Source: Thioalkalivibrio nitratireducens DSM 14787 (GTDB lineage: Bacteria; Pseudomonadota; Gammaproteobacteria; Ectothiorhodospirales; Ectothiorhodospiraceae). From it: 64,000 nt of DNA. The translations under genes were made by a program, and so were the position numbers. The stretch lies in assembly GCF_000321415.2 (NCBI RefSeq), contig NC_019902.2, positions 1,736,001-1,800,000 on the forward strand, read 5' to 3'. The notes under the pieces were generated by a model. That model was given only the letters and a program-made list of their open reading frames with translations, made no database searches and was not told where the DNA came from. This document shows, piece by piece, positions 1 through 19,674 of this stretch. The first letter of the stretch is position 1. Each line of letters opens with the position of its first letter.

Positions 1-877
1 CCCGGTTCCCGATCCGCCCCCGGCAGAGCAATTCCCCGACCAGGCCGCCGCGCGAATGCGAGATCAGATGCAGCGGCTGGTCCGGCGCCAGGTGTTCCAG
101 CACCGTGCAGGCATTCAGGATCGGGCTCTCGCTCAGACTGCAATGCTCCAGCGCGAACACGTTGCCGCCGTACAGGGCGTTCACCTTTTCCCGCCAGGCG
201 TTCCACCGCTCCCGAGCCTTCCCGCCCCCCTTGCTGCTCTTCGCGCCCCAGAGCCCACTGAAACTCCCGAGCGTCGACGAGGCCGTGCCGTGCAGCAGAA
301 CCAGGATCGGGGTGTCGGAACGCGGAAACGCCCCCCGAACCGCATCGAACAACGGGGCCTCCGCGTTACCGGGGAATAAGCAGCGATAAAGGCCCGTGCG
401 CCCCTCGAGCAACTGCCCCTCGATCTTCCGGATCCCCGTCAGCACCGCCTGCGTCGCTGCTGCATCCTTCAGTTCGTCCTTCCAGCGCACCCGCACGATC
501 GACAGGCGCCTCAGCCACCGCCGAATCCCGCGCGAAGGCGCGCCGCCACGTGCCAGCGGGGTTTCGGAACCCAGCACCAGATCCCCATCCGCCTGCCCGG
601 CAAGCTCCTGCAATCGCTCCACCGTCAGCCACAGCTCGCCGCCGTCGTCGAGCTCGACTCGCACGACATCGCCGGGGTCCAGGTCCCTGCTGACCACCTC
701 CCCGCCAGCTCGCGCAGCACCGACCTCGAAGCTCTCGATCGAATCGATCTCGAACAGCCCCGCCGAGCACTCGTTGATGGATTCGCGTTCGGACTCGGAA
801 GCCCGGTCGGAACGGGCCAGTCCACGACTCGCCCCAGGCTGCGTGGTAAAAGTCAGCGTGATGGTTGTTTGCAACAT
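1..877 (-). CDS. alpha/beta-hydrolase domain protein, C-terminus beyond window edge
   Basis: The minus-strand frame is open from the ATG at 877 to base 1, so at least 292 residues are present and the C-terminus is missing. A strong ribosome site (GGGAGGGG) lies just upstream of the start. After an N-terminal region of unknown function, a hydrolase core begins: an HGTASS oxyanion-type loop near residue 190 and a nucleophile elbow SHSRGG near residue 275. Such hydrolases are found in large bacterial proteins with C-terminal CHAT or other effector domains; that part cannot be seen here. The gene is divergent from the neighbouring DUF4062 gene and fits the conflict-gene island. The catalytic class is inferred from the motifs; the substrate is unknown. 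Confidence 0.75.
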   Translation of the reverse strand, partial: MLQTTITLTFTTQPGASRGLARSDRASESERESINECSAGLFEIDSIESFEVGAARAGGEVVSRDLDPGDVVRVELDDGGELWLTVERLQELAGQADGDLVLGSETPLARGGAPSRGIRRWLRRLSIVRVRWKDELKDAAATQAVLTGIRKIEGQLLEGRTGLYRCLFPGNAEAPLFDAVRGAFPRSDTPILVLLHGTASSTLGSFSGLWGAKSSKGGGKARERWNAWREKVNALYGGNVFALEHCSLSESPILNACTVLEHLAPDQPLHLISHSRGGLVGELLCRGRIGNR

Positions 878-1168
878 CGCATCCCCTCCCTGGTCTTGCT
901 GCTGTGACACCTACCTTATAGCAGAGCCTCGGCAGCCTCCTCGTCATTCCAAGGCCAATACAGGGCACACGCTTGCCGGAGTCCCCGAGAAACGACCCGC
1001 CGGTCGTTTACTCAAGACTATCGGCGAAAAACCAGGCAACAGTCGTCTCGCGGTGCGACCGGGCTTTGCCATGGGGTGGAACGCAATTGGTGTCATTGAC
1101 GGCTACGGGTAACATCTCGGAAGGAAGTTGCGAATTCGTGCGTTGCCAGCCTGCCGTAAACGGAACCC

Positions 1169-2140
1169 ATGGCCAGGATCTACATCTCCTCAACGAAGCT
1201 CGACCTGCAAGCCGAACGCCAAGCCGCGATGGACTGGCTGACCGCTGCCGGCCACCAGCCGGTGCACAGCTACACGGCGGCCAGCGAGACTGTGCGGCAT
1301 AGCTGCCTGGAGGACGTTTCCGAGTGCGATGTCGTCGTGCTGATCCTGGGGCACCGCTACGGATTTCGACCGGAGGACAACAACCCGGAGGGGCTGTCGA
1401 TCACCCACCTGGAGTTTCGTCGCGCCCGTTCCGCAGGCATCCCGGTGGTCGCGCTGTTCCGTACCACCATCCACAATACCCAAGTCTCGGTTATTCAGGA
1501 TCCGGAGCCGTTGGGGGCATTGGAGGATTTTCACCGAGAGGTTCGGCGTGCAGTTCGTCCGGCCGAGTTCGAGGACCTCACCGGTTTGCGCGATCATCTC
1601 AGGATGGGGGTGAACCGCGAGCTTGACAAGCAGAGCCGTCGCAACCGACTTTCGGCACCCGATCTGCGCGAGCGATTCCAGCGTGCTTCTCGGGATCTGC
1701 TTTCTTGGCCCACGACCCTGCCCCAAGACCGTTGGCTGGCTCGCCCCGAACTCGACGATCTGCTTCAACACATCGGGGAAGCAACTCATTCGGTGCACCT
1801 GCTGCTGGGTGAGCCGGGCTGCGGCAAGTCGGCACTGCTCGCGCGCCTCGGCGCTCTCCTCGAACAGCAATCGATTCCGGTGCTCGGTATCAAGGCGGAC
1901 TATCTGCCGCAACAACTGGCCGACGACATGGCTCTCGCAGACTACCTGGAGTTGCCCGGCAGCCCCGCGGCTTGTGTGCGAGTCCTCGCACAGGAAGGAC
2001 CGGTGGTGATGCTGCTCGACCAGCTTGATGCCCTGGCGGATCTGCTGGTGCAGCATTCCGATCGCCTGCGCGTGCCGCTGGAGCTGATTCGCGATCTCGC
2101 CGGAACCGAGAATGTGCATGTTCAAGTGGGGAAGCGCTGA
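1169..2140 (+). pseudogene. DUF4062-STAND NTPase, truncated
   Basis: The N-terminal ~95 residues (start MARIYISST) match the DUF4062 sensor/effector type. A P-loop (GEPGCGKSALL, about residue 215) and a Walker B-like stretch (VVMLLDQLDAL, about residue 280) follow, as in STAND/NACHT ATPases. Family members usually run to roughly 1000 residues with a long C-terminal sensor. This one stops at 323, immediately after the TENVHV stretch that normally precedes sensor-1. It ends in unrelated intergenic DNA. I therefore read it as a 3'-truncated remnant that keeps the nucleotide-binding motifs but has lost the arginine-finger and sensor parts. Activity is doubtful. Confidence 0.75.
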
Positions 2141-2432
2141 TTCATTCGTCATCGCGAGGAACGAAGCCTTTAGCCGCGAAGGATTCACCCCCATGCCTGC
2201 CCCGCATCTCCCCCAAGGGGAGCAGAGCGGGAACTGTTCCCCGACCAGCAATGGCTAACGACCTGCCCAGTGCCCCGTACCATACTGCCCCGCTTGGTTT
2301 TGGCAACGCTTGGTCTACTCTTGATACAGGGGTGACACGCGCGGATTCCCGAAAAGGGTTAGCGCCGCGGGGAACCGGACCCTGGGCGCGTCAACACAGG
2401 ATCGCGGCTCCCGGACGATGAGGAGACGCAGG
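2141..2432. other. non-coding scar after the truncated STAND gene
   Basis: No gene is supported here. The stretch opens with a chromosomal-repeat-like sequence (TCATCGCGAGGAACGAAGCC) and holds a short hairpin near 2210 (CTCCCCCAAGGGGAG). It is probably where the 3' part of the DUF4062-STAND gene was lost. Confidence 0.5.
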
Positions 2433-2552
2433 ATGTACGGTAACCCCACCGACGAGGTGAAGGATTCGTTGCTATCCGTGGTCGATCGGCAGCGGCGGCT
2501 TTTCGCATCCCCTCTCGCGGCAAACCGGTGGCACGAAGCGGGACTCCGGTGA
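2433..2552 (+). CDS. small ORF translationally coupled to the TIR gene
   Basis: A 39-codon ORF begins MYGNPTDEVKDSLL, with a good ribosome site (GAGGAGACGCAGG) directly before its ATG. Its TGA overlaps the GTG of the downstream TIR gene as GTGA. This arrangement suggests translational coupling and argues that the TIR protein starts at 2549. The peptide resembles nothing I recognise. It could be a small adaptor or antitoxin-like partner, a leader that only sets coupling, or the remains of an effector-associated domain. The spacing, ribosome site and overlap are seen; the function is open. Confidence 0.5.
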   Translation: MYGNPTDEVKDSLLSVVDRQRRLFASPLAANRWHEAGLR

Positions 2553-3655
2553 GCTACGTCGGTCCGCCTTTCTCGCACGACATCTTTGTCAGCTACAGCC
2601 ATGGCGACGATGGCAACGGCCAATCCTATCTGCAACCCTGGTCGGTGGCTTTCGCCGCTGAGTTGGAGCGGGAACTCAAGGTCGATCGCAGGTACCGGGA
2701 ACCGCTGCGGATCTTCCTCGACCAGCAGCACCGCCCGGGGCATGGCGTGGATCCCCTGGCGCCCCTCACCGATCAGCTACGCCGGGAAATCGAGGCCTCG
2801 GCCTTGCTGCTCGTATTGATGTCACCCGACTACCTGGCGTCCCCATGGTGCGAGGACGAAAGGGAATGGTGGTGCAAGCGCCAGACCGCCACGGGTTTGC
2901 CCATCGAGGGGCGCGTCGTCATCGTGCAGATCCTGCCCACCGAGGAGACGTGGCCCGATGTTTTTTCCGATCAGCGTGGACATCGGCTCAAGGGGTTCCG
3001 ATTCCACACCAGTGGCAAGATTCCTGCCCGGCCGCTCGGCTGGTCCGTACTCCCCGGCCCCCGCCCCTTCGGCCAGGATTTCGACGAAGCGCTACTCGAT
3101 ATCGTCGGGCGTCTTCACCTCAAACTCGACGATATGCAGCGCGTGCTCGAGGAACAGCTCAAGGCTCGGGCCGGGGCGGAACGACTGGCTCACACCGATG
3201 GACAGGTGTTGTACCTGCATGGCCGCGTCGACCAGGCCCGCAGATGGGAGGACACAGCGATCGCGCTGACGCAGGAGGGATTCGCGATTGTGCCCGGTGA
3301 ACCTGACACCGTTGAAAAAGATCCCGTGAAGCGCCAGGAGGCCCGCGAACGCCGCGTGGAGATCATGGCTGAGAGCGATGCTGTGTTGCTTCTGGGTACC
3401 GACGACGCCCGCGCCGTCGACACCGATCTCATCGTGATCGGCAAGCATGACCGGCAATCGGCGCGCGCGCGTTCCAGCCGTCCCCTCCCCTGCGGCCTTC
3501 TGAACACCGTCGGAGATGGCATCGTGACACCGGTGCGTCGGGCCACCGCACGCAATGTCCAGGCCGATTGGCTGGATGCAACCGACGACCCCTGGACGCC
3601 TGCCGTCCGACAGTGGCTTGCTGGCCACAGTGCACAACTGAGACACGACGAATGA
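2549..3655 (+). CDS. TIR-domain protein
   Basis: The N-terminal ~165 residues form a TIR domain: HDIFVSYSH at the first beta strand, and an SPWCEDEREWW segment that places an acidic residue where the catalytic Glu of TIR NADases sits. A second, weaker Rossmann-like segment (VLYLHGRVD, then VLLLGTDDA) occupies the C-terminal half. GTG 2549 is preferred to GTG 2528 because of the GTGA overlap with the small upstream ORF. The stop overlaps the ATG of the nSTAND1 gene (ATGA), so the two are probably made in stoichiometric amounts. Bacterial TIR domains commonly cleave NAD+ or make cyclic-ADP-ribose signals. Here that is inferred from the fold and context. Confidence 0.85.
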   Translation: MSYVGPPFSHDIFVSYSHGDDGNGQSYLQPWSVAFAAELERELKVDRRYREPLRIFLDQQHRPGHGVDPLAPLTDQLRREIEASALLLVLMSPDYLASPWCEDEREWWCKRQTATGLPIEGRVVIVQILPTEETWPDVFSDQRGHRLKGFRFHTSGKIPARPLGWSVLPGPRPFGQDFDEALLDIVGRLHLKLDDMQRVLEEQLKARAGAERLAHTDGQVLYLHGRVDQARRWEDTAIALTQEGFAIVPGEPDTVEKDPVKRQEARERRVEIMAESDAVLLLGTDDARAVDTDLIVIGKHDRQSARARSSRPLPCGLLNTVGDGIVTPVRRATARNVQADWLDATDDPWTPAVRQWLAGHSAQLRHDE

Positions 3656-5400
3656 GTGGCCGTACCACGGAGCCGGCGGGTACCCCCTTCGGTTCCGACC
3701 GCCCCCCGCGCCCTTATCCCGGGTTAAGACCGTTCGAGAAACACGAGTGGCTGATTTTCTTCGGTCGTGAGCGCATGGTCGATGCGGTCGTGAACCGCCT
3801 GATCCACAATCGCTTCGTCGTCGTGCACGGGGATTCGGGCTGCGGGAAGAGTTCCCTGATCCGCGCCGGTGTCCTCCCCTGGCTGGAGCAGGACAGTGCC
3901 CGCGGAGGTGCTGTCTGGCACGTCGGCATCATGCTCCCGGGTCACGCGCCCTTGTGGAACCTCGCCAAGGTCCTGGCGGCGACCCCTGACACCCCGAATT
4001 CGGGCGATGATTTCGAGGAACGGGTCGTCGCGATCCGGAGAATGCTGAATTTTGGGGCCGGCGCCGTGGCGGATCTCGCGGAGTTCCTGGGAGCGGATGC
4101 CGATCGCCCCTTCTGCTTGTTGGTCGACCAGTTCGAGGAGTTGTTCGAACACGCCCGTCGCCATGGTGACGAGCAGGCCCGTTTGCTCGCGGATCTGCTG
4201 GTGGGCCTGGCACAGAACCCACCGGCCGGTTTCTACACGGTTCTCACAATGCGCTCGGAATTCCTGGGTGCCTGCGCGCGATACCGTGGCCTTGCGGAAA
4301 CGGTCAATGCCAACCAGTACCTGTTACCACGGATGGAACACGCGGACCTGTTGCGCGCGATCCGCGAGCCGGCAAAGCTCTACTCAGGCTGGGTGAGCCG
4401 GGAATTGGCGAATCGCCTCATCGCCGATTCCGGAGGCGATCAGGACCAACTGCCTTTGATCCAGCACGGGCTGATGCGCCTGCATCAGAGGTTTGTCAGC
4501 ACAGACAGGCCCGCACCCGCCGACCCGCAGCCGGAACTCGATGGGGCTGAATCAACCTCTCCTCGCTGGCGTCTGGAGAGCGAGCACTACCAGGGGAAGC
4601 ACGGCCTCAATGGCCTCCTGTCGGATCACGCCGACGAGGTCATGGCGGTTGCGCAGGAGACTTGCATCCGTGGCGGCGATTCACCTCGCCTGATCGAAGA
4701 TCTGTTTCGAGCGCTCACGGAAATCAACGCCGATGGCCACGCCATCCGGCGGCCCTGCAGTCTGTCCGAGCTACTCGCCGTGACAGGAGCGACGGAGGGC
4801 ACGCTCCGCTGCGTACTCGAAGCCTTTCGCAAGGATGGCGTATCGTTCCTGAGGCCCTACGGTGAAGCTCCCCTGGAGGCCCAGGATCGGATTGATATCA
4901 GCCACGAGGCGCTGATCCGGTGTTGGCAACGAATCGCCGATCCCGAGAAGGGCTGGCTGATCCGGGAGTTCCGCAGTGGGTTGATCTGGCGTGCCCTGCT
5001 GGTTCAGGCCGACAGCTTCGAACGCGACCGCGCGAATCTCCTTGGCCCAGGTACCACCGAGGAGCGTGCGGCGTGGCTTGAACGTCGCAACCCCGCCTGG
5101 GCACAGCGCTACGGCGGCGGCTGGGAGCGGGTACAAAAGCTTCTGGCTGCAAGCATGCGCGAAAGCAAGCGTATCCAAGCCGTCGAACGCAGCCGGCGAA
5201 GATTGCAGAACGTCACCGCCGCTCTGATCATCCTTCCCGTCATTATGGGATTGCTGGGCTGGGGGTGGTGGCAGCAATCACAAGTACAGCAGGCCTCCTC
5301 GGAGGCGGAGGGTTTTCAACGCGAACTGGCACGTGAGCGGTTGTGGCAAGGCGAACCGGGAACGTATCCGTTCAGCCCCCCCTGGAGAAAGCTGCGATGA
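3652..5400 (+). pseudogene. nSTAND1 NTPase, N-terminal part of an IS-split gene
   Basis: The protein opens with the nSTAND1 signature (PYPGLRPF, FFGRE), a Walker A motif (GDSGCGKSSL, about residue 63) and Walker B (LLVDQFEELFE, about residue 160). A helical region follows, then a single transmembrane helix near residue 530 (LIILPVIMGLLGWGWW). An IS66-like element enters at 5364, so the final dozen codons come from the element. The native continuation lies at 7760-8216 in the same codon phase. Removing the element and one 8-bp duplicate gives a 722-residue protein. Family knowledge: nSTAND1 proteins are signal-transducing ATPases of biological-conflict systems. The ATGA overlap couples it to the TIR gene. 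Confidence 0.85.
5356..5363. repeat. 8-bp target-site duplication, left copy
   Basis: CCGGGAAC lies directly before the left inverted repeat and is repeated exactly at 7752-7759. Eight bases is the duplication length expected for IS66-family insertions. Confidence 0.9.
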
Positions 5401-5463
5401 CTTGACGGTATAGCGCGTCGCGGCTATGGTGGTCTCCATGATCACGGGGATGGGAGGCGTGCG

Positions 5464-6129
5464 ATGGGCGGCTATTTCGGTTCGAAGGCGACGGTCGGGT
5501 TGTGCCAATCGATCATTGCCTTGATGCCGCCGCACGACACCTACATCGAAACCCATCTCGGTGGTGGGGCGATCATGCAGCGCAAGCCGGCGGCGTTGCG
5601 CAATATTGGCATCGACCTGGACCCGCAAGCACTGCGGGAGTTTGCGGGCCCCTATCCGATCGAGAAGGTGAACGCCTGCGCGCATGCGTTTCTGGCCGGG
5701 TTCGATTTCCAGGGCCGGGAATTGGTCTACAGTGATCCGCCGTATCTGCATGCCACCCGCACCTCGCGGCGGCGCTATCGATTTGAATACCAGGAGGCCG
5801 ACCATCTCGAGCTGCTTGCGCTGCTCCAGTCGCTCCCCTGTTCGGTCATCCTGTCGGGCTACCCCTCGGCGCTGTACGACGAGCATCTGACGGGTTGGCG
5901 GAGCCTGGAAGTGCAGGTGATGATCCAGGGTCGGGTGCGCACCGAGAAACTCTGGTTCAACTTCACGCCCGATCGGGTGCATTGGCCGCGCTATGCGGGC
6001 AAGAACTTCACCGACCGGCAACGGATCAAGCGCAAGGCCGCGAGCTGGGGCGAGCGCTACCGGGCCATGCCCGCGGCGGAGCGCCTGGCGGTGCTCTCGG
6101 CCCTGATGGCGGTTGAGGCCGAGGATTGA
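5464..6129 (+). CDS. D12-class DNA adenine methylase, IS passenger
   Basis: The protein has 221 residues with a FGSK-type N-terminal motif, a SAM-binding motif I (ETHLGGGAI, about residue 30) and the catalytic SDPPY motif near residue 95. These mark an N6-adenine methyltransferase of the Dam/D12 group. The length is shorter than Dam (about 270), mainly through a small target-recognition region. GGGAGG precedes the ATG. No restriction endonuclease is nearby, so it is an orphan enzyme carried by the element. It might mark element DNA, regulate transposition as Dam does for IS10 and IS50, or protect from host restriction. Its role is inference. Confidence 0.85.
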   Translation: MGGYFGSKATVGLCQSIIALMPPHDTYIETHLGGGAIMQRKPAALRNIGIDLDPQALREFAGPYPIEKVNACAHAFLAGFDFQGRELVYSDPPYLHATRTSRRRYRFEYQEADHLELLALLQSLPCSVILSGYPSALYDEHLTGWRSLEVQVMIQGRVRTEKLWFNFTPDRVHWPRYAGKNFTDRQRIKRKAASWGERYRAMPAAERLAVLSALMAVEAED

Positions 6130-6144
6130 GGTGGGTCGCGGAGG

Positions 6145-7693
6145 ATGCGCCTGAGCCCACACGATCTTCGGCAGATCGACGAGGCGTTCATCGCGGCCCT
6201 GAGCGAAGCCGCGCTGCGCGTGCTTGCGGTGAATCTGCTGGTGGATTTGAAAGAGGCGCATGATCGCCTGGGGCAAAACCCGGCCAACAGTTCCCGGCCA
6301 TCGAGCAGCCAGCCCCCTTGGGAAGCCGCCAGCGCAGCAGAGACGGAGGACCCAACCGAAGATCCGACGGCACCCGCGTCAGAACCCCGTCATCTGCGGC
6401 GACCACGCCCGCCTCCGACAAGAACAAGGCGCCCGCCGGCAAACCCGGCAAGCGCCCGGCGCACCCGGTTGCGGCCGTCTGGTCACGTTGCCGGTGCAGG
6501 AGGAGATCCTGCACAGCCCCGATCGCTGCCGATGCTGCGGCACGCCCTTTCCCGCGGATGCTCCGACCAAGGGCTACAATGGTCGCTATGCACTCGATGT
6601 GGTCGCCCCCACTTCGGGTTCCCCAGGCCTTGAAGTCCGTCACACCAAGCACGTCTATCTGCAACGGCAATGTTCCTGCGGCCATTGGACGCATGCGGAA
6701 CCGGGACGCTGTGCAGAGAATACGGACTGGCAGGTCGAACTGACCGAATGGCACCTGGCCGGTCCGATGCTGGTGGCGCTGATCTGCGCCTTGTCGCTGC
6801 GCCAGCGCGTTTCGCGCCGGGGTGTCCAGGAGTTTCTGGCCGATTGGCTGGGCGTATCCCTGAGCATCGCGGCGATCCACCAATGCCTGCACGAAGCCGG
6901 TCGCGCGGTCGCGCCGGTGATCGAGCGCGATATCGTGCCGTTGATTCGCGAGGCCGAACTGCTGCATGTCGACGAAACCGGCTGGAAAGAGGGAAACCAG
7001 CTCTTGTGGCTGTGGGTCTTTACCTGCACCACCGCCACCCTGTTTGCCATCGGCAGGCGTTCCCGCAGGATGCTGCACAAGATCCTGGGCGAAGCGTTCG
7101 TTGGCTGGTTGATGAGCGATGGCTTCTGGGCCTATCGCGATTACGATCGCCGCTTGCGCTGCCTGGCGCATCTCATCCGCAAGGCCCATGGGCTGGACCA
7201 GAGCCTCGACCCACTGGCGCGACCGTTTGGTGCCGCCACCCTGGCCCTGTTCGAGGACCTGCTCCAGCAAGTCTACCAGGCCCGGGAAGGACCACAGCCT
7301 CCGGCCGATCTGTACCAGAAAAACCGCGGCAAGCTCGACGCCTTCAACGACCTATGCGTGGATCACTGGGACTGTGCGCACGAAAAGACGCGGCAACTGG
7401 CGCGCGAGTTCACCCATGACTGGGAGGCGATCTGGGCCGTTCTGGAGTTTCCGCGGTTGCCCATCACGAACAATTGGGCCGAACAGGCCTTGCGGCACTG
7501 GGTGATCAGCCGTCGCATCAGCCAGGGCACCCGGACCGAGCAGGGTTCTTTGGCCTTCGCGCTCCTCGTCAGCGTGATCGAAACCTGCCGCAAGCGCGGG
7601 GTCTCGCCCTGGCCCTACCTGGCTCAGGTGGTCCAGCAGCGGCGCAAAGGCGAGCCGGCCCCCGTTCTGCCTGAACCCGCCCCGGCACCATGA
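6145..7693 (+). pseudogene. IS66-type DDE transposase, two apparent frameshifts
   Basis: The true N-terminus (MRLSPHDLRQIDEAF) lies in one frame and the body in another. Reading moves to the -1 frame near 6392 (CCCC run) and again near 6460 (CCGG). Adding one C and one G restores a continuous IS66-type protein of about 515 residues. The body has a zinc-finger-like pair (CRCCG, CSCGHW) and the DDE triad contexts VDETGW, SDGFWAYRDY and NNWAEQALR. Either the enzyme is inactive or these are homopolymer sequencing errors; the second is plausible because similar losses occur in unrelated genes of this window. Confidence 0.85.
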
Positions 7694-7730
7694 CCTTTCG
7701 CCGCATGCGGTTGTAATACCAGCACTCAAG

Positions 7731-7751
7731 CCTGGGGGAGTGAACGCATAC
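7731..7751. repeat. right terminal inverted repeat of the IS66-like element
   Basis: The reverse complement begins GTATGCGTTCACTCCCCC and pairs with the left end at 5364-5385. It is followed immediately by the second copy of the 8-bp duplication (7752-7759). Confidence 0.85.
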
Positions 7752-7759
7752 CCGGGAAC

Positions 7760-8216
7760 GAGACCGTATACTTCCCCCGGCCACGAGGAGAGGATACTAC
7801 TTCCTCGGGATACAGCTTCAGATCAGGCTAATGCCTTAGAGATTCCCGCGCAGGCTGCAGAAGATTTTCCGCTGCGGGTATTCGTTCATATCGCCGAGGA
7901 TGCGCAACGCGTACCTGCTCAGGGACTCGAACGGCAACTCGAAGAACGGGGCTTGAAGGATGGTTCACGCATCCAAGCACCGGGAATTGAATTAGTGAAC
8001 GCCGCGCCGCGGCGCAGTGAACTGCGGTGCTTCCGGGCTGAGGAATGCGGCAACGAGGGCGATCAGCTGCTGGCGATCACCAACGAGATTCTTGCCGAAC
8101 CGCAGCTCCGGCTCAACGATCTGAGCCGCCGCTACGGCGACTCCACCGCGATCCGCCCGCGACATTTCGAGATCTGGTTCGCTGCGGGCGACGCCATCCA
8201 GTTGCGCTCTGAATGA
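7760..8216 (+). pseudogene. C-terminal part of the IS-split nSTAND1 protein
   Basis: This stretch continues the nSTAND1 frame in the exact codon phase after the insertion and ends at TGA 8214-8216. It encodes about 150 residues: a low-complexity linker, then a globular segment with the pattern LRVFVHIAEDAQR, IELVNAAPRRSELRCF. That pattern resembles the small C-terminal domain (LytR-C / SPOR-like fold) that closes some caspase- and TIR-linked proteins. A downstream ATG- or GTG-initiated fragment might still be made, but it would lack the NTPase. The next gene starts 38 bp later. Confidence 0.75.
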
Positions 8217-8254
8217 CTGGCATCAAAAAAGGAAACCCACCAGGAGGTGCAATC

Positions 8255-10024
8255 ATGTCCAAGATTCCCAAGACCTGGATGCCCAAAGTGCAGATGCGCC
8301 GCATCGTCTGTCACTGGACAGCCGGCACCTACCAAGCCTCCGCTCTTGATCGCAAGCACTACCACATCCTGGTTGAGGGTGACGGGAACCTGGTACGGGG
8401 CAAACACAGCATCGCAGACAACCAGTCCACTACCGATGGGAAATACGCCGCGCATACCGCGCGGCTCAACACCGGATCGATCGGCCTGACGGTTTGCTGT
8501 ATGGCGGGGGCGCGGGAACGCCCGTTCGATCCGGGACGATTTCCAATGACCGAACGGCAGTGGCGCACCATGGCTCAGGCCGCGGCAGATCTCTGCGTGG
8601 CCTACGAGATTCCCGTCACGTCACGCACGGTGCTCGGCCATGGTGAGGTCCAGCGCAATCTCGGTGTGGCACAGTCGGGAAAGTGGGACCCCATGGTCCT
8701 GCCCTGGGAACCACGGCTGCCCACCGAACAGGTGGGCGAACGCTTTCGCGAGCTGGTACGCGCTTTCATCGACGGGGTCGTCCCGGACGAATCGCTGGGT
8801 GCGGATCTGGATGCAAAAATACTGGGTGTGGCATTGAAGGGCTCGCTTCATGCTGACGAAGAGGCGTTCCTGAAGGTGGAAAGCCTGGTCCAGGATGTAG
8901 GCTGGCAACTCCTCAACGCCTCCCGCGACACTCTGGCCCTGCTGCCTTCCGGTCACACGATGCCGCTGTTCTTGAACGGCGTGTTTCTCGATGGCGAGAC
9001 GGTGGTCCCGGACGAGGCGACCGAGAGCGAGGTGGCCGAATTGATGATGTCCCACGGCTATGTGCGAGCAGCCGCGGCAGCGGCTGCTCTGGAGTTGCCG
9101 CTTGTGTTCGACCTGGAGAAGAATCGGATCGAGATCGGCGATAAGCCGCCCCGGCGCTCGACCAAGCCTCCGGAGCACCGCCGCTGGGTCGTGGAGCCTG
9201 GGGATACGCTCTACGCTCTTGCCGCCCGTCACTTGGGCAACGGAGCCCGCTGGCACGAGTTGCTTCAATCCGATGGTCAGCCTTTCGACGAGGCCAGTGC
9301 GCGCCTCCTCGCGCCAGGCGACGTGGTGCTGATCCCGGGCCTCGCCGGAGCGGCGGTATCCGAGGAGCTCGCGCCCCCCTCCATTGAAGCCTTGCCAGTC
9401 CCCGAGGAGCTAACATGGCTGGACGGTTCCACGATTCATGCCTTGGCGGCAGCTTGCGTCGGCAGTGTGGACGCAGGACTTCGCAGATTCGCTGAAGAGT
9501 CCATCCCCGTGATCCTGGCCGAGTGCCTGGCCAGCGGAGTGAATACGCGAACACAGATTGCCTACGTGCTGGCGACCTCTGAGCACGAATCGCAGTGCGG
9601 GAAGTTCATGGTTGAGATCTGGGGACCCACTCCTGATCAAAAGCGCTACGAGGGACGTAAGGATCTCGACAATACACAGAAAGGGGACGGCTTCCGCTTT
9701 CGTGGGAGGGGCTATGTGCAGATCACCGGCCGACACAACTACAGGTTCTGGTCGAAAAGGCTGGGAATCGACCTACTCTCCAGGCCAGACCTCACCTACC
9801 AGGATCCAAGCATCGCGGCCCGCATTCTGGTCCAGGGCATGCGCGACGGGACTTTCAGGCCGGCGCACAAGCTGCCGAGGTACGTCAACGACGACGTCGC
9901 GGACTTCTACAATGCTCGCGAAGTGATCAACGGCGACAAGGCCCGCGTGGACTCCGGGCACACCGACGATCGCGGCACCCGAATCGCGCGTATTGCCGAG
10001 CGCTACCTTTCCAGCATGAGCTGA
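8255..10024 (+). CDS. peptidoglycan hydrolase: amidase - LysM - GH19-like lytic domain
   Basis: The ATG at 8255 has an ideal ribosome site (AGGAGGTG), better than the upstream in-frame ATG at 8213. Residues ~10-150 form an Amidase_2/PGRP domain with zinc-ligand contexts VCHWTAG, LGHGEVQ and GKWDP. A LysM-type repeat (WVVEPGDTLYALA) lies near residue 315. The C-terminal ~200 residues resemble GH19 chitinase/lysozyme domains (TSEHESQ with the likely catalytic Glu, RGRGYVQITGRHNY). No signal peptide or holin is seen and no phage structural gene is near. The gene lies 38 bp after the nSTAND1 C-terminus, so it may be the lytic arm of that module. A secreted-effector role or a captured endolysin remain alternatives. 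Confidence 0.8.
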   Translation: MSKIPKTWMPKVQMRRIVCHWTAGTYQASALDRKHYHILVEGDGNLVRGKHSIADNQSTTDGKYAAHTARLNTGSIGLTVCCMAGARERPFDPGRFPMTERQWRTMAQAAADLCVAYEIPVTSRTVLGHGEVQRNLGVAQSGKWDPMVLPWEPRLPTEQVGERFRELVRAFIDGVVPDESLGADLDAKILGVALKGSLHADEEAFLKVESLVQDVGWQLLNASRDTLALLPSGHTMPLFLNGVFLDGETVVPDEATESEVAELMMSHGYVRAAAAAAALELPLVFDLEKNRIEIGDKPPRRSTKPPEHRRWVVEPGDTLYALAARHLGNGARWHELLQSDGQPFDEASARLLAPGDVVLIPGLAGAAVSEELAPPSIEALPVPEELTWLDGSTIHALAAACVGSVDAGLRRFAEESIPVILAECLASGVNTRTQIAYVLATSEHESQCGKFMVEIWGPTPDQKRYEGRKDLDNTQKGDGFRFRGRGYVQITGRHNYRFWSKRLGIDLLSRPDLTYQDPSIAARILVQGMRDGTFRPAHKLPRYVNDDVADFYNAREVINGDKARVDSGHTDDRGTRIARIAERYLSSMS

Positions 10025-10100
10025 TCCTATGGCCCATCGTCGCTTGAGCAGATGCTCCACGCTGCCTTACACCACCCCACTCTGACCGAGAAACCGCATC

Positions 10101-11432
10101 ATGCCCGCCGCTCAGCTTCCCCTCTGCTTCGTCCTGATGCCCTTCGGCAAGAAACCTACGGTCGGCGGCACCGTGGTGGACTTCGATGCCATCTACCGCG
10201 GTCTGATCGCGCCCGCGATCGAGCAGGCCGGGCTTGACCCGCTACGCGCGGACGAGGAAATGACCGGGGGCATCATCCACAAGCCGATGTTCGAGCGGCT
10301 GATTCTGTGCGAGTACGCGGTGGCGGACCTGACCACCGCCAACGCGAACGTGTTCTACGAGCTGGGTCTGCGGCACGCGGTGCGCCCGGCGAGCACGGTG
10401 ACTCTCTATGCCGAGGACACCGGGCAACTCCCGTTCGACGTCGCTCCGCTGCGCGCGATCCCCTACCGGCTGGGTCCCGACGGCATCCCGGTCGATACGG
10501 CGGTAATCCGTGAGGCACTGACTGAGCGGCTGCGCGAGGCCCGCCACGGGGCAACCGACAGCCCGGTGTTTCAACTGGTCGAGGGCTTCCCCGACATCCA
10601 GCGGCTCAAGACCGACGTATTCCGGGAGCGGGTGGCCTATTCCGAGTCGCTGAAGCAACGCCTGGCCGCCGCGCGCAACGAAGGCGTCGAAGCCGTACGT
10701 GGCGTGGAGAACCAACTCGGCGCTCTCGCCGATGTCGAGTCGGGGGTGGTGATCGACCTGTTTCTGTCGTATCGGGCGGTGAAGGCCTGGGAGGACATGA
10801 TCGCGCTGGTGCCGAAGATGGCGCCGCCACTGGCCGCCACCGTGCTCGTTCAGGAACAGCTTGGACTGGCGCTCAACCGCGCTGGTCGCGGCGACGAGGC
10901 CGAGCGCGTGCTGCTCGACCTGATCACCCGGCGCGGGCCCAGCAGCGAGACCTACGGCATCCTCGGACGCGTGTACAAGGATCGCTGGGAACGGGCACTG
11001 AAGGACGGCGATACCCTGCTCGCGCGGGGTCAGCTCAACCAGGCGATCGAGGCCTACCTGAAGGGTTTCGAGACCGACTGGCGGGATGCCTACCCGGGGG
11101 TCAACGCGGTCACGCTGATGGAGCTGCGCGAGTCGCCGGATCCGCGCCGCGAGCGTTTGCTCCCGGTCGTCGCCTATGCCGTCGAGCGGCGCATCGCCGC
11201 GGGCAAACCCGACTACTGGGATCACGCCACCCGGCTCGAACTCGCCGTGCTGGCCAAGGACGAGGACGCGGCGCAGGCCGCGCTCGCGGATGCGCTCGCC
11301 GCGATTCGGGAGCCCTGGGAGCCGGAAACCACCGCCCGCAACCTCCGGCTGATCCGCGAGGCACGCCTGCGCCGGGGCGAGAGCCCGTCCTGGACCGAGG
11401 AGATCGAGCGGGTACTGGGCCGCAGAACATGA
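10101..11432 (+). CDS. TRAFs-binding-type (DUF4071-like) protein with nucleotide-binding N-terminus
   Basis: The first ~125 residues carry an FVLMPFG start, a Rossmann-like alternation and ADLTTANANVFYELGLRHA. This is the pattern of the nucleoside 2-deoxyribosyltransferase-like / TIR-related fold found in bacterial conflict proteins. The remainder is helical, TPR-like, with RRGPSSETYGILGRVYKDRWE typical of the MAP3K-type TRAFs-binding region. No catalytic assignment is made. The stop overlaps the start of the patatin gene as ATGA, and that protein has the same GxxYKRRWE-type helical module at its N-terminus. The two probably form a complex or a sensor-effector pair. Confidence 0.7.
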   Translation: MPAAQLPLCFVLMPFGKKPTVGGTVVDFDAIYRGLIAPAIEQAGLDPLRADEEMTGGIIHKPMFERLILCEYAVADLTTANANVFYELGLRHAVRPASTVTLYAEDTGQLPFDVAPLRAIPYRLGPDGIPVDTAVIREALTERLREARHGATDSPVFQLVEGFPDIQRLKTDVFRERVAYSESLKQRLAAARNEGVEAVRGVENQLGALADVESGVVIDLFLSYRAVKAWEDMIALVPKMAPPLAATVLVQEQLGLALNRAGRGDEAERVLLDLITRRGPSSETYGILGRVYKDRWERALKDGDTLLARGQLNQAIEAYLKGFETDWRDAYPGVNAVTLMELRESPDPRRERLLPVVAYAVERRIAAGKPDYWDHATRLELAVLAKDEDAAQAALADALAAIREPWEPETTARNLRLIREARLRRGESPSWTEEIERVLGRRT

Positions 11433-14071
11433 ACAGGGGGAACGGGAACATGGACGAGTCCATCAAGCAAGCCAGAACCCTACTGCAGGGGGAACAGCCA
11501 TCACCGGAGGGGTCCGTGCTCCGGAAGCTCGTCAAGGAATTGAAGGGCGCTCTGGAGTTCGCTCTGGCAAGCCAGGTCCTGGCCCGGGCCAGGCACCACG
11601 CCCCGGGCGATATCTGGATCGTCCAGCAGTTGGCCCTGTGCGCCTACAAGGACGAGGAGCGGCCGCCAGCCACCCGATTTGCCGAGGCCCTGGCGTTGCT
11701 GGAGGGGATCGGCCTGCGCGATCCCGGGAACCGTAACGCCGAAACCCTGGCGCTGGGCGGAGCGGTATACAAGCGCCGGTGGGAGCAGTTCGGAAAGCTC
11801 GAGGACCTGCACGAAGCACTGGTCTTCTATCGGGCAGCCTACGAGCGCAACCCGGAAGAGGACATGGGTTATGGTGGCGTCAACGCGGCTTTCGTGCTCG
11901 ACCGGCTGGCGGCCCGCGCGGCGAGCGTGGCCGCGCGCACCGGCACGGATCCGGTCGAGGCCGAGGCCCTCCGCGCGAAGGCTCGAGCACTGCGCGAGGA
12001 CATGGCCGTCGAGCTACCGCGAGCCGCGGAAAGGAACCCTGCCCTTGAGGGGCAGTACTGGTACGTTGCAACGCTGGCGGAGATCCAGTTCGGCTTGGGA
12101 AACTACACCCAGGCGGGAGAGTGGCTGGCCAAGGCCAGAAACATCGAGACGAAGGAATGGGAGCGCCAGACCACGTTCCGGCAACTGGTCACCCTGGCCC
12201 GTCTCCAGGGCATCGAAGCACCCATCGAGAATCGGGACAGCGTGAAATGGCATCCCGCGTGGCAGGCGCTTGCCGAGCTGTTGGGAGAGGAGACCGAGCT
12301 GGCCCTTTCCTGCTACCGGGGCAAGGTTGGGCTCGCCCTGTCGGGCGGCGGCTTTCGCGCCTCGTTCTTCCATTTGGGAGTGCTGGCACGCCTGGCGGAA
12401 ACGGATGTGCTGCGCAGCGTCGAGGTGCTGTCCACGGTGTCCGGGGGCAGCATCGTCGGGGCGCACTATTACCTGGCCGTGCGTCATTGGCTTCAGAGCC
12501 ATCCGGACCGCGGGATTTCCCGTAGCGACTATTTGGCGATGGTAAGCGAGTTGCAAAAGCAGTTCCTCGCCGGCGTACAGCGCAATCCGCGCATGCAGGT
12601 ACTCGCGCGCCTGGGCGAGAATCTGCGCATGATCTTCCGCAAGGACCGCTCCCGGAGCCACCGACTCGGTGAGATCTTCGAAGAAGCGCTGTACGGCCGG
12701 GTGGCCGACGGGCACCTTCTGGACCAGCCGCGTGTCCTTGCCGAGTTGCTGATCAAACCGGCGGGTGAATCCGATCCGGACTCGTTCAAACCCAGGTTCT
12801 CGAACTGGCGGCGCCGCGCCAGGGTGCCGGCGCTGCTGCTGAACGCCACGTCTCTGAACACCGGACATGCCTGGCAGTTCAGCGCCCGCTGGATGGGCGA
12901 GCCGCCCGGGCTGATCGGCACGGAGGTGGACGTCAATGAGCGACTGCGCCGCCCGTACTACAGGGACATGCCCACCGAAGCCCTGCGCCAGTATCGCCTG
13001 GGCCACGCCGTGGCCGCGTCAGCCTGTGTGCCCGGCCTGTTCGAACCGCTGGTCATCGAGGGTCTGTACCCGGAACGAACCGTGCGTCTGGTGGACGGTG
13101 GGGTCCACGACAACCAGGGTGTGGCCGGCCTGCTCGACGAAGGCTGCACGCTGATCCTGTGCAGCGACGCCTCGGGCCAGATGGACGACCAGAGCAACCC
13201 GTCCGACAGGCTCGTCGGTGTCCCGTTACGGGCGAACAGCATCCTGATGAAGCGGGTGCGCGATATCCAGTACCAGGATCTCGTCGCCCGCCTCGACAGC
13301 CGCGCGATCGAAGGGCTGTTCTTCGTGCACCTGAAGAAGGATCTCGCGTCCGAACCCCTCGACTGGATCGGCTCCGACGAACCCAGGTCCGAGCCGCAAC
13401 ACACCGGTCAGCGCACCCCTTACGGCGTGGATCGTGACCTGCAATCCAAACTGGCCGCGCTGCGTACGGATCTGGACAGCTTCACCGAGGTCGAGGCACA
13501 CGCCCTGATGCTGAGCGGCTACCTGATGACGGAACACCAGTTCCGCGAACTGCAGCAAGGCCACGAGAAGGAAGGTCAGCCCGGCACCTGGGGGGACTAC
13601 GATGTCGGCGCGCCGCGCGGCGATTGGTCGTTTCTAGCGTTGGAGGAGTTGCTGGGGCAACCGCCCGACAGCCCGGATGTTCGCCGCAAGGATCTGGGGT
13701 TACAGCTCCAGGTCGGTGCGGCTCGCCTCTTCAAGGTCTGGAGGCTGGTCCCGGCATTTCGCGTGGCCGGCTGGGCGGCTCTGATTGCCGCTCTGCTGGC
13801 AATCGCGACGCTGACGGCAACGTTCTGGAACACCCCGCTACCGAGCCTGGCGCCTACCTTGGGAGCCCTTGTCCTGATACTCGCGCTGATCGCGGCTGGT
13901 CTCATGGTCCCGGCGCTGAAGTGGGTCCAGCCGGAGCGCGCAATGCGGGGGCACCTGCGCAAGGGACTGATCGCGGTCGCGGGATTTGTCGCCTCCAGGG
14001 TGCACCTGGCATTCTTTGACCGCCTGTATCTCGCGCGCGGCCGGGTCGGCCGCTTGCTCGGCCTGAAATGA
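11429..14071 (+). CDS. TPR/TRAFs-binding - patatin phospholipase with membrane tail
   Basis: The protein has 880 residues from ATG 11429 (a second ATG lies at 11450). Residues ~1-260 are helical repeats related to the preceding protein (YKRRWEQF). A patatin domain follows: glycine-rich oxyanion region LALSGGGFRASFFHLG near residue 305, nucleophile motif STVSGGS near 338, and the DGG of the Ser-Asp dyad near 550 (LVDGGVHDNQG). The C-terminal ~140 residues hold two transmembrane helices. Patatin domains hydrolyse membrane lipids and are known effectors of bacterial immunity. ATGA coupling to the upstream gene suggests joint control of a membrane-damaging enzyme; the trigger is unknown. Confidence 0.85.
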   Translation: MNRGNGNMDESIKQARTLLQGEQPSPEGSVLRKLVKELKGALEFALASQVLARARHHAPGDIWIVQQLALCAYKDEERPPATRFAEALALLEGIGLRDPGNRNAETLALGGAVYKRRWEQFGKLEDLHEALVFYRAAYERNPEEDMGYGGVNAAFVLDRLAARAASVAARTGTDPVEAEALRAKARALREDMAVELPRAAERNPALEGQYWYVATLAEIQFGLGNYTQAGEWLAKARNIETKEWERQTTFRQLVTLARLQGIEAPIENRDSVKWHPAWQALAELLGEETELALSCYRGKVGLALSGGGFRASFFHLGVLARLAETDVLRSVEVLSTVSGGSIVGAHYYLAVRHWLQSHPDRGISRSDYLAMVSELQKQFLAGVQRNPRMQVLARLGENLRMIFRKDRSRSHRLGEIFEEALYGRVADGHLLDQPRVLAELLIKPAGESDPDSFKPRFSNWRRRARVPALLLNATSLNTGHAWQFSARWMGEPPGLIGTEVDVNERLRRPYYRDMPTEALRQYRLGHAVAASACVPGLFEPLVIEGLYPERTVRLVDGGVHDNQGVAGLLDEGCTLILCSDASGQMDDQSNPSDRLVGVPLRANSILMKRVRDIQYQDLVARLDSRAIEGLFFVHLKKDLASEPLDWIGSDEPRSEPQHTGQRTPYGVDRDLQSKLAALRTDLDSFTEVEAHALMLSGYLMTEHQFRELQQGHEKEGQPGTWGDYDVGAPRGDWSFLALEELLGQPPDSPDVRRKDLGLQLQVGAARLFKVWRLVPAFRVAGWAALIAALLAIATLTATFWNTPLPSLAPTLGALVLILALIAAGLMVPALKWVQPERAMRGHLRKGLIAVAGFVASRVHLAFFDRLYLARGRVGRLLGLK

Positions 14072-14174
14072 GTGACAACGCACACTTCGGCGCTGTTCCT
14101 CCGTATCGGGTACGCTGGCGCGCCTGGCACGGAAACTTGCGCCGGTACCTCTCGGCGACCCACAAGAGGGCTCG

Positions 14175-14870
14175 GTGAAGATCTTTCTCGCGTTTTCCTT
14201 CCGGGACGACGACAAGGCCCTCGTCGGTTTCGTCGAGCAGCTCCTGGCCAGTCACCACGTGCAGGCGATCACAGGCGAACGTCTAGCCGGGGAGCAGCTT
14301 ACCCCGGCCGTACAAAGGAGAATCGACAGCAGCGACGCCCTCGTGGCCCTGCTCACGCGTCGAGACGAGTTGCTGGGTGGCGGCTGGACCACCCACCAAT
14401 GGGTGCTCGACGAACTGGCCTACGCCCGCGCCCACAACAAGCGGGCGATCGCCGTGGTCGAGGATGGAGTTAACAACGGCGGCATGTACCAGCCGCATGA
14501 GCGGATCGCGCTGAACCGCGACCAACCCGTCGAATCCCTGCTGATCCTCTCGGAAACCATCGGCCTGTGGAAGCGCGCCGTGGGTCGCACGGTCAAGGTA
14601 CAACTGCTTCCGGCAATGCTGGCCCGGCGGCTCGGAGCCGCCGGCAACAATAGCCGGTGCCGCTATCGGCTCTGGCTACGGGGCGAGTTCACTGACTGGC
14701 GGGAGAGTACTCCGGTGCCCGAGGGCGGCGGTACCTTCCTCTACATCAACGGTGTCGACGACGAGCATCTGATTCAGTTGGAGGTCCAAGAGTACAACAA
14801 GGTCTGGCAGTCCGTCGCCACGTCGCAATGGATGCACATCAAACTCTCTTCAGTGGGTAATCAGCCATGA
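14175..14870 (+). CDS. TIR-domain protein
   Basis: The gene starts at GTG 14175 with MKIFLAFSFRDDD, a typical first strand and box 1 of a TIR fold. The segment THQWVLDELAYARAHNKRAI supplies the helix that usually carries the catalytic Glu in TIR NADases. Residues ~150-231 form a separate small beta-rich region of unknown type. Its stop overlaps the start of the next gene (ATGA), which also ends in a TIR-like domain. The pair is therefore probably one functional unit. NAD+ cleavage is inferred from family knowledge only. Confidence 0.8.
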   Translation: MKIFLAFSFRDDDKALVGFVEQLLASHHVQAITGERLAGEQLTPAVQRRIDSSDALVALLTRRDELLGGGWTTHQWVLDELAYARAHNKRAIAVVEDGVNNGGMYQPHERIALNRDQPVESLLILSETIGLWKRAVGRTVKVQLLPAMLARRLGAAGNNSRCRYRLWLRGEFTDWRESTPVPEGGGTFLYINGVDDEHLIQLEVQEYNKVWQSVATSQWMHIKLSSVGNQP

Positions 14871-15694
14871 GCCTCCGCATCGCACAGGACGCCCATTACC
14901 AGGGCAAGAACTGGTGGCGCTGGTCCGTCTGGCTGGATGGATCTCCGGCGGAACTCGACGACGTGTCGCATGTGGTTTACACGCTGCACCCCACCTTCCC
15001 CACACCGGTTCGCCACACCGACGATCGCAGTTCGGACTTCCGGATCTCTTCGGCCGGCTGGGGAGAGTTCGAGATCTTTGCGGAAGTCACACTCAAGAGC
15101 GGTGAGACCCTGAAGCGGCATCATTGGCTCACGCTCGAACAGCCGCCTACGAAACCAGACCAAGGACTGCCCAGAATCAAATCAACACACTCGGAGGTTC
15201 CACGAAAAGCCCGGAAACGGGGCATGGCCACGAACGATCTGGTTGGCAGCAGCCCTCCGCGCCGCGCTGCCACGAGAGGCGTCGCGCCCAAGACGGAGAC
15301 GCTGCCTCTCACCGTGTTCCTGTCGGGCAGCGTCGGGGATATGCCGGCCATACGGAACATCAGGGCGGTGCTCGAACGTCACGGTGCCAAGGTCACCACA
15401 GCGGAGGACATCGCTTCCGGACTGCCGTGGGAACACGCCATACGTGAGCGCATCCGCAACGCAGACGTTGCGGTGTTCGTCCTCTCACGCCGCCCCAGCC
15501 TCTTCCTGATGCAGGAGATCGAGCTAACCCTTGAGATCGGCACCGGACTCGTGGTTCCCGTACTCATCGGCACCGAAGTTGAACCGCCGCAGCAACTCCA
15601 AGGGTGGCAGGCATTCCGGGTCTCGGATGACAAGGAACTTGAAACGGTGGCCCTGGATGTCCTCAAGAGTTCAGTGGCAAGAGAACGCGGGTGA
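14867..15694 (+). CDS. pYEATS-like domain fused to a TIR-like domain
   Basis: The first ~95 residues read as a prokaryotic YEATS domain: W-W-V strand pattern, VVYTLHPTFP, then SSAGWGEFEIFAEV and a closing LTLE strand. A basic linker follows, and from about residue 145 comes a TIR-like / nucleotide-binding fold (LTVFLSGSVGDMPAIRNI, DVAVFVLSRRPSLFLMQEIELTLEIG). Eukaryotic YEATS domains read acyl-lysine marks. Prokaryotic versions have been noted in conflict systems with TIR and STAND genes. The start overlaps the preceding TIR gene by four bases. What the pYEATS part senses is unknown. Confidence 0.75.
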   Translation: MSLRIAQDAHYQGKNWWRWSVWLDGSPAELDDVSHVVYTLHPTFPTPVRHTDDRSSDFRISSAGWGEFEIFAEVTLKSGETLKRHHWLTLEQPPTKPDQGLPRIKSTHSEVPRKARKRGMATNDLVGSSPPRRAATRGVAPKTETLPLTVFLSGSVGDMPAIRNIRAVLERHGAKVTTAEDIASGLPWEHAIRERIRNADVAVFVLSRRPSLFLMQEIELTLEIGTGLVVPVLIGTEVEPPQQLQGWQAFRVSDDKELETVALDVLKSSVARERG

Positions 15695-15759
15695 TGGCCG
15701 AGAGGTCGTGGCTATGACTGCAGCGCTCGAGCACGCAAGGGGAGCGCACAGGCGTGGGG

Positions 15760-16200
15760 CTACCAGGGGCCGAAACGCGGGGCCGGGGCGTTGGTGTAGA
15801 AGTCCTCGCGGGGTTGCGGGAGCGGGCCGCGGTACTCGGCGGGGTAACGGGTGATCTGTCCGCTCCGGGGGTCGATGCCGGTCCACGAAAACCAGCGCCA
15901 AAAATCGCCGCCGGCCTCGATGATCCGCTGAGTGTCGGGCTCCCAGACCACATGCCCGGCCGGCGCAATCGCACTCACGCGCAGGCAGGCCCCGCTCGCC
16001 GCATCCCATACCCGCAGCGTCCCCTCACCCCCCGCCGACACAAGCCGAGCGCCGTCCGGCGAATACGCGCAGAACAACACCCAGCCCTCGTGCCCGCACA
16101 GCGTCCGCAGACGCTCCCCGCTCGCCGCATCCCACACCCGCAGCGTGCCGTCACCCCCGGCCGAGACCAGTCTCCCACCCTCGGGCGAAATGGTCCCGGC
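15760..16200 (-). pseudogene. C-terminal fragment of a WD40-repeat protein
   Basis: Reading leftward from about 16200, two WD40 blades are clear: SPEGGRLVSAGGDGTLRVWD and SPDGARLVSAGGEGTLRVWD. A closing HVVWEPDTQRIIEAGGDFWRW segment and a stop near 15760 follow. This tail is typical of STAND-WD40 proteins. Everything upstream is missing: at ~16200 the sequence switches abruptly to a plus-strand gene fragment. It is a remnant, likely of a second STAND-type gene in the island. Confidence 0.75.
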
Positions 16201-16203
16201 TGG

Positions 16204-17067: not shown

Positions 17068-17142
17068 GCCGGCACAACGGCCATCCGTCCGGGAATCGGC
17101 GCCGGTGTCTGACCGAGGTACGACGCTGCGCCTCGCGCTACG

Positions 17143-19672: not shown

Positions 19673-19674
19673 GT

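What the first reader, a model, noticed from the sequence alone, without database searches (positions are those of the whole stretch)
2433..10024. Candidate undescribed module: sORF - TIR - nSTAND1 - amidase/LysM/GH19
Four consecutive genes are linked by GTGA and ATGA overlaps and a 38-bp gap. A TIR enzyme and a membrane-anchored STAND ATPase could sense and signal, and a two-headed peptidoglycan hydrolase could execute lysis. I know of no named system with this set. The module may be a lytic abortive-infection device.
Basis: partly seen in the sequence, partly recalled or inferred. Interest (0 to 1): 0.75.

Follow-up and report, generated by a model that had tools for sequence, protein, structure and literature searches.

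The report
TIR-STAND cassette beside endolysin-like hydrolase
A probable bacterial self-defence gene pair sits in one gene run with a cell-wall-cutting enzyme of viral type; the trio was seen only in two sister species, and in this genome a jumping gene has broken it.

Summary
The anatomy is real. A 39-codon ORF, a TIR gene, an nSTAND1 gene and an Amidase_2-LysM-GH19 gene follow one another with GTGA and ATGA overlaps and a 38-bp gap. Here the nSTAND1 gene is split by a 2388-bp IS66-type element; a sister genome (G011) has the same order unsplit. TIR and full-length hydrolase occur in the same 2 of 30 genus genomes. Outside them the link was not found: 0 of 80 loci with hydrolase relatives showed TIR or nSTAND1, and 0 of 11 other nSTAND1-bearing genomes examined showed the hydrolase nearby; TIR lay near nSTAND1 in 4 of those 11. 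Two indirect results keep a link open. The STAND protein ends in a transmembrane helix plus an undescribed domain, and two free-standing homologues of that domain also lie near cell-wall hydrolase genes. And 3 of 8 full-length hydrolase relatives have a patatin gene nearby (about 0.15 expected). Best reading: a lineage-specific TIR-STAND conflict cassette that recruited a cytosolic endolysin-like hydrolase; new variant of a known kind.

The parts
2433..2552 (+). 39-codon ORF, GTGA overlap with TIR gene; perhaps only a leader for translational coupling
2549..3655 (+). TIR-domain protein, 368 aa (TIR_2 E 1e-6), with a C-terminal part that has no Pfam match
3652..5363 (+). nSTAND1 NTPase, N-terminal piece: nSTAND1 domain (residues 21-450) and one predicted transmembrane helix (residues 518-536)
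5356..5363 (+). left 8-bp target-site duplication
5364..7751 (+). IS66-type element splitting the nSTAND1 gene; holds a Dam-like methyltransferase gene (5464-6129) and an IS66 transposase gene (6260-7693); 5 full copies in the genome, this one included
7752..7759 (+). right 8-bp target-site duplication
7752..8216 (+). nSTAND1 C-terminal piece: undescribed tail domain; no Pfam, PADLOC or NCBIfam match at E 0.01 and no PDB match at E 1
8255..10024 (+). two-headed endolysin-like hydrolase: Amidase_2, LysM, GH19-like; no signal peptide seen (frame open from 8213)
10101..11432 (+). TPR-S / MAP3K_TRAF_bd protein, next gene on the same strand
11429..14071 (+). TPR-S-patatin protein with two predicted transmembrane segments; absent from the 34-kb G011 stretch compared

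Best explanation
This is a TIR-nSTAND1 conflict (probably anti-phage, death-type) cassette of a variant form, with an endolysin-like hydrolase recruited into the same gene run in one lineage. Shown: gene order, overlaps, domains, unsplit sister copy, break by an IS66-type element. Inferred: the STAND NTPase sits at the inner membrane, with its tail outside the cytoplasm or against the membrane, in place of the WD40 or TPR repeats found in other TIR-nSTAND1 pairs. On sensing infection or envelope damage it assembles and switches on the TIR enzyme, which depletes NAD. The hydrolase accumulates in the cytosol because it has no export signal. It reaches the wall only once the inner membrane is breached, by the dying cell, a neighbouring phospholipase or the phage's own holin, and then completes lysis. 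In this genome the cassette is probably dead, because the NTPase gene is split.
For: Same-strand junctions with GTGA, ATGA and 38 bp, and no + strand terminator-like site in those junctions. Unsplit version in G011. TIR and full-length hydrolase in the same 2 of 30 genus genomes. The stretch from about 1751 to 10500, holding all these genes, is about 98.5% identical between the two species, while the 1.75 kb before it and the 0.9 kb after it are 87-94%, as if exchanged in one piece. Hydrolase dN/dS 0.17. TIR lies near nSTAND1 in 4 of 11 other genomes, overlapping it by 4 bp in G356 and G064, whose nSTAND1 proteins end in WD40 or TPR repeats. Two free-standing homologues of the tail also lie near cell-wall hydrolases: in G418 a GH108 endolysin gene followed by GTA_holin_3TM, about 106 bp after the tail gene; in S. 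fredii a PG_binding_1 protein with a sub-threshold CHAP match, 2.6 kb away. Published precedent: STAND systems with a TM followed by peptidoglycan-associating domains, and lysozyme or papain-like effectors (PMC7159879, passages).
Against: No independent genome was found to repeat the TIR-nSTAND1-hydrolase order. The tail was not found in any of the 80 hydrolase-relative loci. The tail-hydrolase adjacency rests on two outside cases; in G418 the tail gene has 45% GC against 63% for the endolysin gene, so they probably arrived separately, and in S. fredii the hydrolase-like gene is on the other strand with two ORFs between. The high-identity block ends inside neighbouring genes, and other stretches further downstream also reach 96-100% (16251-17000, 19751-21000), so it shows contiguity rather than function. 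NADase activity, membrane topology and lysis were not tested.
Confidence: 0.45

Rival explanations
1. The hydrolase is an independent, endolysin-derived gene that happens to lie after TIR-nSTAND1 in a conflict-gene island. The tight junction is accretion, not function.
For: 0 of 80 hydrolase-relative loci and 0 of 2 plasmid loci show TIR or nSTAND1. 0 of 11 other nSTAND1-bearing genomes examined show it nearby. In the Lamprocystis bin it lies beside flavodoxin-like, pyrophosphatase-like and moaC-like genes (labels by eye), in the Thiodictyon bin beside cbb3-oxidase-like genes (by eye). The viral contigs found match only its amidase part. The island is patchy: patatin, TIR2 and pYEATS-TIR are absent from the 34-kb G011 stretch compared.
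Against: Tight same-strand junctions, joint presence in 2 of 30 genus genomes, and the tail-near-hydrolase theme in two other genomes.
Confidence: 0.35
2. The hydrolase's true partner is a phospholipase: a lipase opens the inner membrane in the manner of a holin and lets the signal-less hydrolase out. The window's TPR-S-patatin gene (11429-14071) would fill that role, and TIR-STAND is a neighbour or a trigger.
For: Patatin within the held flanks of 3 of 8 full-length relatives (L017, L018, L020) and 0 of 72 others by my own profile. PF01734 matches at the same three places, by position. Expected from genome-wide PF01734 density in those 8 genomes 0.15, P about 0.0005 (post hoc). L020's patatin is 39% identical to the window's. 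G011 has a lipase-like alpha/beta-hydrolase gene upstream instead (by eye).
Against: The patatins are of different types; 5 of 8 full-length relatives have none in the held flanks; in the window a TPR-S gene lies between; patatin is absent from the G011 stretch compared. My profile was trained partly on those same patatins and sees two held-out patatins only weakly (2.5e-4 and 0.0036), so the 0 of 72 is soft.
Confidence: 0.12
3. The hydrolase is a weapon sent to other cells, with neighbouring lipoproteins as immunity proteins in relatives. TIR-STAND is unrelated.
For: No signal peptide seen in the hydrolase; lipoprotein-like ORFs upstream in the alphaproteobacterial loci and in L020 (lipobox by eye).
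Against: No lipoprotein or injection gene among the Pfam-scanned neighbours in the window; its domains match phage endolysins well.
Confidence: 0.05

Closest known systems
TIR-nSTAND1 conflict pairs; nSTAND1 clade named in Kaur et al. 2021 (PMC8195603, passages)
   Same: TIR gene directly upstream of and overlapping an nSTAND1 gene, as in G356 and G064
   Different: Those end in WD40 or TPR repeats; this one ends in a transmembrane helix plus an undescribed tail and is followed by a hydrolase
iSTAND and EAD1 systems with peptidoglycan-associated parts (Kaur et al. 2020, PMC7159879, passages)
   Same: STAND NTPase near the membrane with a domain after a TM; lysozyme or papain-like wall-attacking effectors in conflict operons
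   Different: No vWA domain among the Pfam hits of the cluster; the tail has no Pfam match; the hydrolase families differ
Phage endolysins (phrog_5867, phrog_181; PDB 9ms7)
   Same: Amidase_2 and GH19-like domains, no signal peptide seen
   Different: Two catalytic heads and LysM in one protein: 0 of 747 phage records with a match hold 80% of it in one place; it lies in a conflict-gene island
AVAST (Avs) STAND defence (recalled)
   Same: STAND NTPase with a death effector
   Different: Effector and NTPase are separate genes here; no PADLOC Avs model matched

Membership tests
TIR-nSTAND1 conflict pair | TIR domain protein | tested here: met
   TIR_2 E 1e-6, 29.7 vs cut-off 28 bits
TIR-nSTAND1 conflict pair | nSTAND1 NTPase encoded directly downstream and overlapping | tested here: met
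   E 3.6e-72; ATGA overlap at 3652-3655
TIR-nSTAND1 conflict pair | C-terminal repeat sensor (WD40, TPR) as in other pairs seen here | tested here: not met
   TM plus tail with no Pfam match; WD40 in L119 and TPR in L121. A habit of the pairs read here, not a strict defining feature
TIR-nSTAND1 conflict pair | anti-phage activity and NAD cleavage | not testable with these tools
   needs the bench
Conserved TIR-nSTAND1-hydrolase module | recurs in independent genomes | tested here: not met
   0 of 80 hydrolase loci; 0 of 11 nSTAND1-bearing genomes examined; only the sister genome G011
Phage endolysin | amidase and GH19 domains with conserved catalytic residues | tested here: met
   H34, H143, K157, D159 and H458, E459, E468 invariant in A1 (3 sequences) and, numbered 14 lower, in A4 (window and 8 relatives); that these are the catalytic ones is recalled
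Phage endolysin | part of a prophage or beside a holin | tested here: inconclusive
   no holin or phage domain among the 19 window proteins scanned; small ORFs and the rest of the window were not scanned
AVAST / Thoeris | match to curated defence models | tested here: not met
   at E 0.01 no PADLOC match for TIR, hydrolase or tail, only weak mad3/mad8 for nSTAND1; Thoeris III model 18.3 vs cut-off 220 bits for TIR
IS66 family element | IS66 transposase, inverted ends, 8-bp target duplication | tested here: met
   DDE_Tnp_IS66 2.6e-30; ends and duplication; that 8 bp is typical of IS66 is recalled

The most novel reading that the evidence does not exclude
The tail is a membrane-anchored control domain for cytosolic endolysins. 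On its own it holds or releases a neighbouring cell-wall hydrolase (as in G418 and S. fredii). Fused to a STAND NTPase here, it makes an inflammasome-like device that releases a two-headed endolysin on command: a sensor-controlled, programmed bacterial lysis system.
Probability: 0.13. Interest if true: 0.8.

Novelty: new variant of a known kind. Interest (0 to 1): 0.42.

Why it matters
If the hydrolase is truly wired to the STAND sensor, it would be a bacterial immune receptor whose output is an endolysin: the cell would use a phage's own type of exit tool as its death effector. Even without that, the undescribed STAND tail domain is a handle, a small findable domain with free-standing relatives near lysis enzymes.

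Tried and rejected
Rejected: the four genes as a conserved module. The 39-codon ORF as a well-conserved small protein. The 7740-8216 ORF as a gene of its own: G011 shows it is the nSTAND1 C-terminus. The Dam-like gene as part of the module: it travels with the IS in 5 full copies. The hydrolase as a plain copy of a phage gene: 0 of 747 phage records with a match hold 80% of it in one place, and the 20 viral-contig relatives match at most its first third. An RNA element: none at the gathering threshold in 1-20000.

Led nowhere: genome-contig scan with the single hydrolase sequence; TIR in plasmids; TIR at 1e-20 in 369 class genomes, own hit only; TIR C-terminal part in 398 phylum genomes, own hit only; tail in 340 class genomes, own hit only; tail in phages and viral contigs; tail profile in PDB; dN/dS for the tail (script error for that row). 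Papers: searches. I read passages of three papers (PMC7159879, PMC8195603, PMC10907252) and saw no description of this gene set there; the other papers listed I saw only as listings.

With held-out controls the nSTAND1 profile finds L131 and L132 strongly and the TIR profile finds L133 and L134 at about 1e-6, but that TIR profile misses the window's two other TIR-like genes and the G011 TIR-NACHT gene; a second profile seeded on those two also found nothing in the 80 loci. A strongly divergent TIR could still be missed. At E 0.01 the nSTAND1 profile touches only an ORF in L005 and L006 where the records name a MacB transporter (0.006). Flanks were at most 10 kb and shorter for several loci (L013 has only 0.14 kb upstream). 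The scan kept 80 of 88 confirmed relatives. Of 12 other nSTAND1-bearing genomes I fetched neighbourhoods for 11 (G399 not), three on contigs of 3-6 kb. PF20703 and PF13676 places were not mapped contig by contig. Gene bounds in unannotated loci are longest-ORF calls; the nSTAND1 of G064 lies in two frames. The three-of-three tail-near-hydrolase count includes the case that suggested it.
Full report
WHAT IS THERE. The window is G000:C1:1736001-1800000 of a 4.0-Mb genome. A 39-codon ORF (2433-2552), a TIR gene (2549-3655), an nSTAND1 gene (from 3652) and a hydrolase gene (8255-10024; frame open from 8213) lie on the + strand. Junctions are GTGA, ATGA and 38 bp. Pfam gives TIR_2 1e-6, nSTAND1 3.6e-72 and Amidase_2 1.5e-12; the GH19 match, 1e-4, is below the curated cut-off. 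PHROG endolysin families (2.7e-38 for the amidase part, 5.2e-30 for the C-terminal part) and a solved endolysin (1.8e-15) secure both heads as endolysin-like. Residues I take, from memory, to be the zinc ligands and the GH19 acids are invariant in the alignments. A hydropathy scan shows no hydrophobic segment in the hydrolase and one in nSTAND1, residues 518-536.

THE BREAK. Between the two nSTAND1 pieces lies a 2388-bp element, 5364-7751, with similar inverted ends and an 8-bp duplication. It carries an IS66 transposase gene and a Dam-like methyltransferase gene, and the genome holds 5 full copies, this one included. G011, a genome of the same genus, has the empty site and an unsplit nSTAND1 of 722 residues counted from the ATG. 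In this genome the STAND protein is therefore broken.

IS THE LINK CONSERVED? Within the genus, TIR is in 2 of 30 genomes. A full-length hydrolase is in the same two; two others have only a short match in the LysM stretch (58 genomes, 4 with any match). Outside the genus the link was not found. The hydrolase scan of genome contigs kept 80 of 88 confirmed relatives, 8 of them full length (L013-L020). Held-out controls show the nSTAND1 profile to be sensitive; the TIR profile finds two held-out TIRs but misses the window's two other TIR-like genes, so a divergent TIR could escape. A second TIR profile made from those two found none in the 80 loci either. From the other side, nSTAND1 is in 13 of 369 class genomes including this one. 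Of the 12 others I read neighbourhoods in 11: TIR lies nearby in 4 (G356, G064, G209, G320) and the hydrolase in 0. In G356 and G064 the TIR gene overlaps nSTAND1 by 4 bp, and the nSTAND1 tails are WD40 and TPR repeats. TIR-nSTAND1 is thus the recurring pair, the tail varies, and the hydrolase is not part of it.

WHAT STILL POINTS TO A LINK. (a) About 6.4 kb not counting the IS (about 1751-10500), with all these genes inside, is about 98.5% identical between G000 and G011, while the stretches directly before and after are 87-94%. It looks exchanged in one piece. Against that, its borders fall inside neighbouring genes, and places further downstream also reach 96-100%. (b) Hydrolase dN/dS is 0.17; TIR 0.38 and nSTAND1 0.43 rest on few changes. 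(c) The nSTAND1 tail has two outside homologues: a 224-aa protein on a Sinorhizobium fredii plasmid, 40% identical, the only match in 72,556 plasmid records, and a protein in G418, the only other hit in 398 phylum genomes. Both are free-standing with a hydrophobic N-terminus by eye. In S. fredii a PG_binding_1 protein with a sub-threshold CHAP match lies 2.6 kb away on the other strand, with a papain-type gene and a small ORF between. In G418 a GH108 endolysin gene starts about 106 bp after the tail gene and is followed by GTA_holin_3TM. Against this: the tail was not found in the 80 hydrolase-relative loci, and the G418 tail gene has 45% GC against 63% for the endolysin gene, so their meeting may be recent.

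THE HYDROLASE ELSEWHERE. Patatin lies within the held flanks of 3 of 8 full-length relatives and, by my own profile, 0 of the other 72. PF01734 matches at the same three places, and genome-wide density predicts about 0.15. This was noticed after the fact, and the profile is not blind and only moderately sensitive. In Alphaproteobacteria the full-length hydrolase ends a three-gene run in 6 of the 7 loci read: membrane protein, lipoprotein, hydrolase (L005, L006, L014, L016, L017, L018, of which L005, L006 and L018 are near-identical Paracoccus copies), with a variant in L015. In a Syntrophobacteraceae bin the run is patatin, unknown, lipoprotein, hydrolase (L020). The common thread is a signal-less hydrolase beside membrane-active proteins.

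MECHANISM. Shown: order, domains, break, sister copy. Inferred from families: STAND switch, TIR NAD cleavage, death of the infected cell. Inferred and weaker: tail at the membrane as sensor or docking site. Weakest: hydrolase as executor, released on membrane failure. Precedent for STAND proteins with TM plus wall-binding domains, and for wall-attacking effectors in such operons, is in Kaur et al. 2020 (PMC7159879; passages read). nSTAND1 is named in PMC8195603 (passages), and nSTAND1 targets of hypermutation are discussed in PMC10907252 (passages). The passages I read do not describe this gene set; searches brought up no paper that I saw to do so.

VERDICT. Real anatomy, not found as a module outside two sister species, broken here, unsplit in the sister. 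Best filed as a TIR-nSTAND1 conflict cassette of a new variant form with a recruited endolysin-like hydrolase. The part most worth following is the STAND tail, not the four-gene set.

Noticed in passing
window 5364-7751: IS66-type element with a Dam-like methyltransferase passenger gene (DPPY motif, TIGR00571 1.3e-6, below its cut-off), in 5 near-identical full copies in the genome.
   Followed up: partly
window 10101-15694: Run of conflict-type genes after the hydrolase: TPR-S, TPR-S-patatin, TIR-like, pYEATS-TIR; the last three are absent from the 34-kb G011 stretch compared.
   Followed up: partly
window 1169-2140 and 15751-16190: Remains of further conflict genes: a short DUF4062-AAA gene, and a WD40 fragment whose G011 counterpart lies in a 1404-aa ORF that reads by eye as TIR-NACHT-WD40.
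   Followed up: partly
L005, L006, L014, L016, L017, L018 (L015 variant): Recurring run in Alphaproteobacteria: membrane protein of about 640 aa (no Pfam match in the three tested), lipoprotein of about 210 aa, hydrolase.
   Followed up: partly
L137:8686-9966 and 13285-13788: Burkholderia stagnalis relative of that membrane protein with a lysozyme-like gene 3 kb away (lysozyme read by eye).
   Followed up: no
L024:9824-11041: Rhizobiales bin with the GH19-like and amidase heads as two adjacent genes instead of one.
   Followed up: no
L140:9505-11229: G418: tail-domain gene of 45% GC beside a GH108 endolysin and GTA_holin_3TM pair of about 62% GC.
   Followed up: partly
window 1751-10500 against L010/L011: Block of about 98.5% identity between two species with 87-94% directly on either side, as if recently exchanged.
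   Followed up: partly
G011 (L010/L011 joined and reversed, 12645-14246): Lipase-like alpha/beta-hydrolase gene upstream of the sister locus, not in the window's corresponding place (by eye).
   Followed up: no
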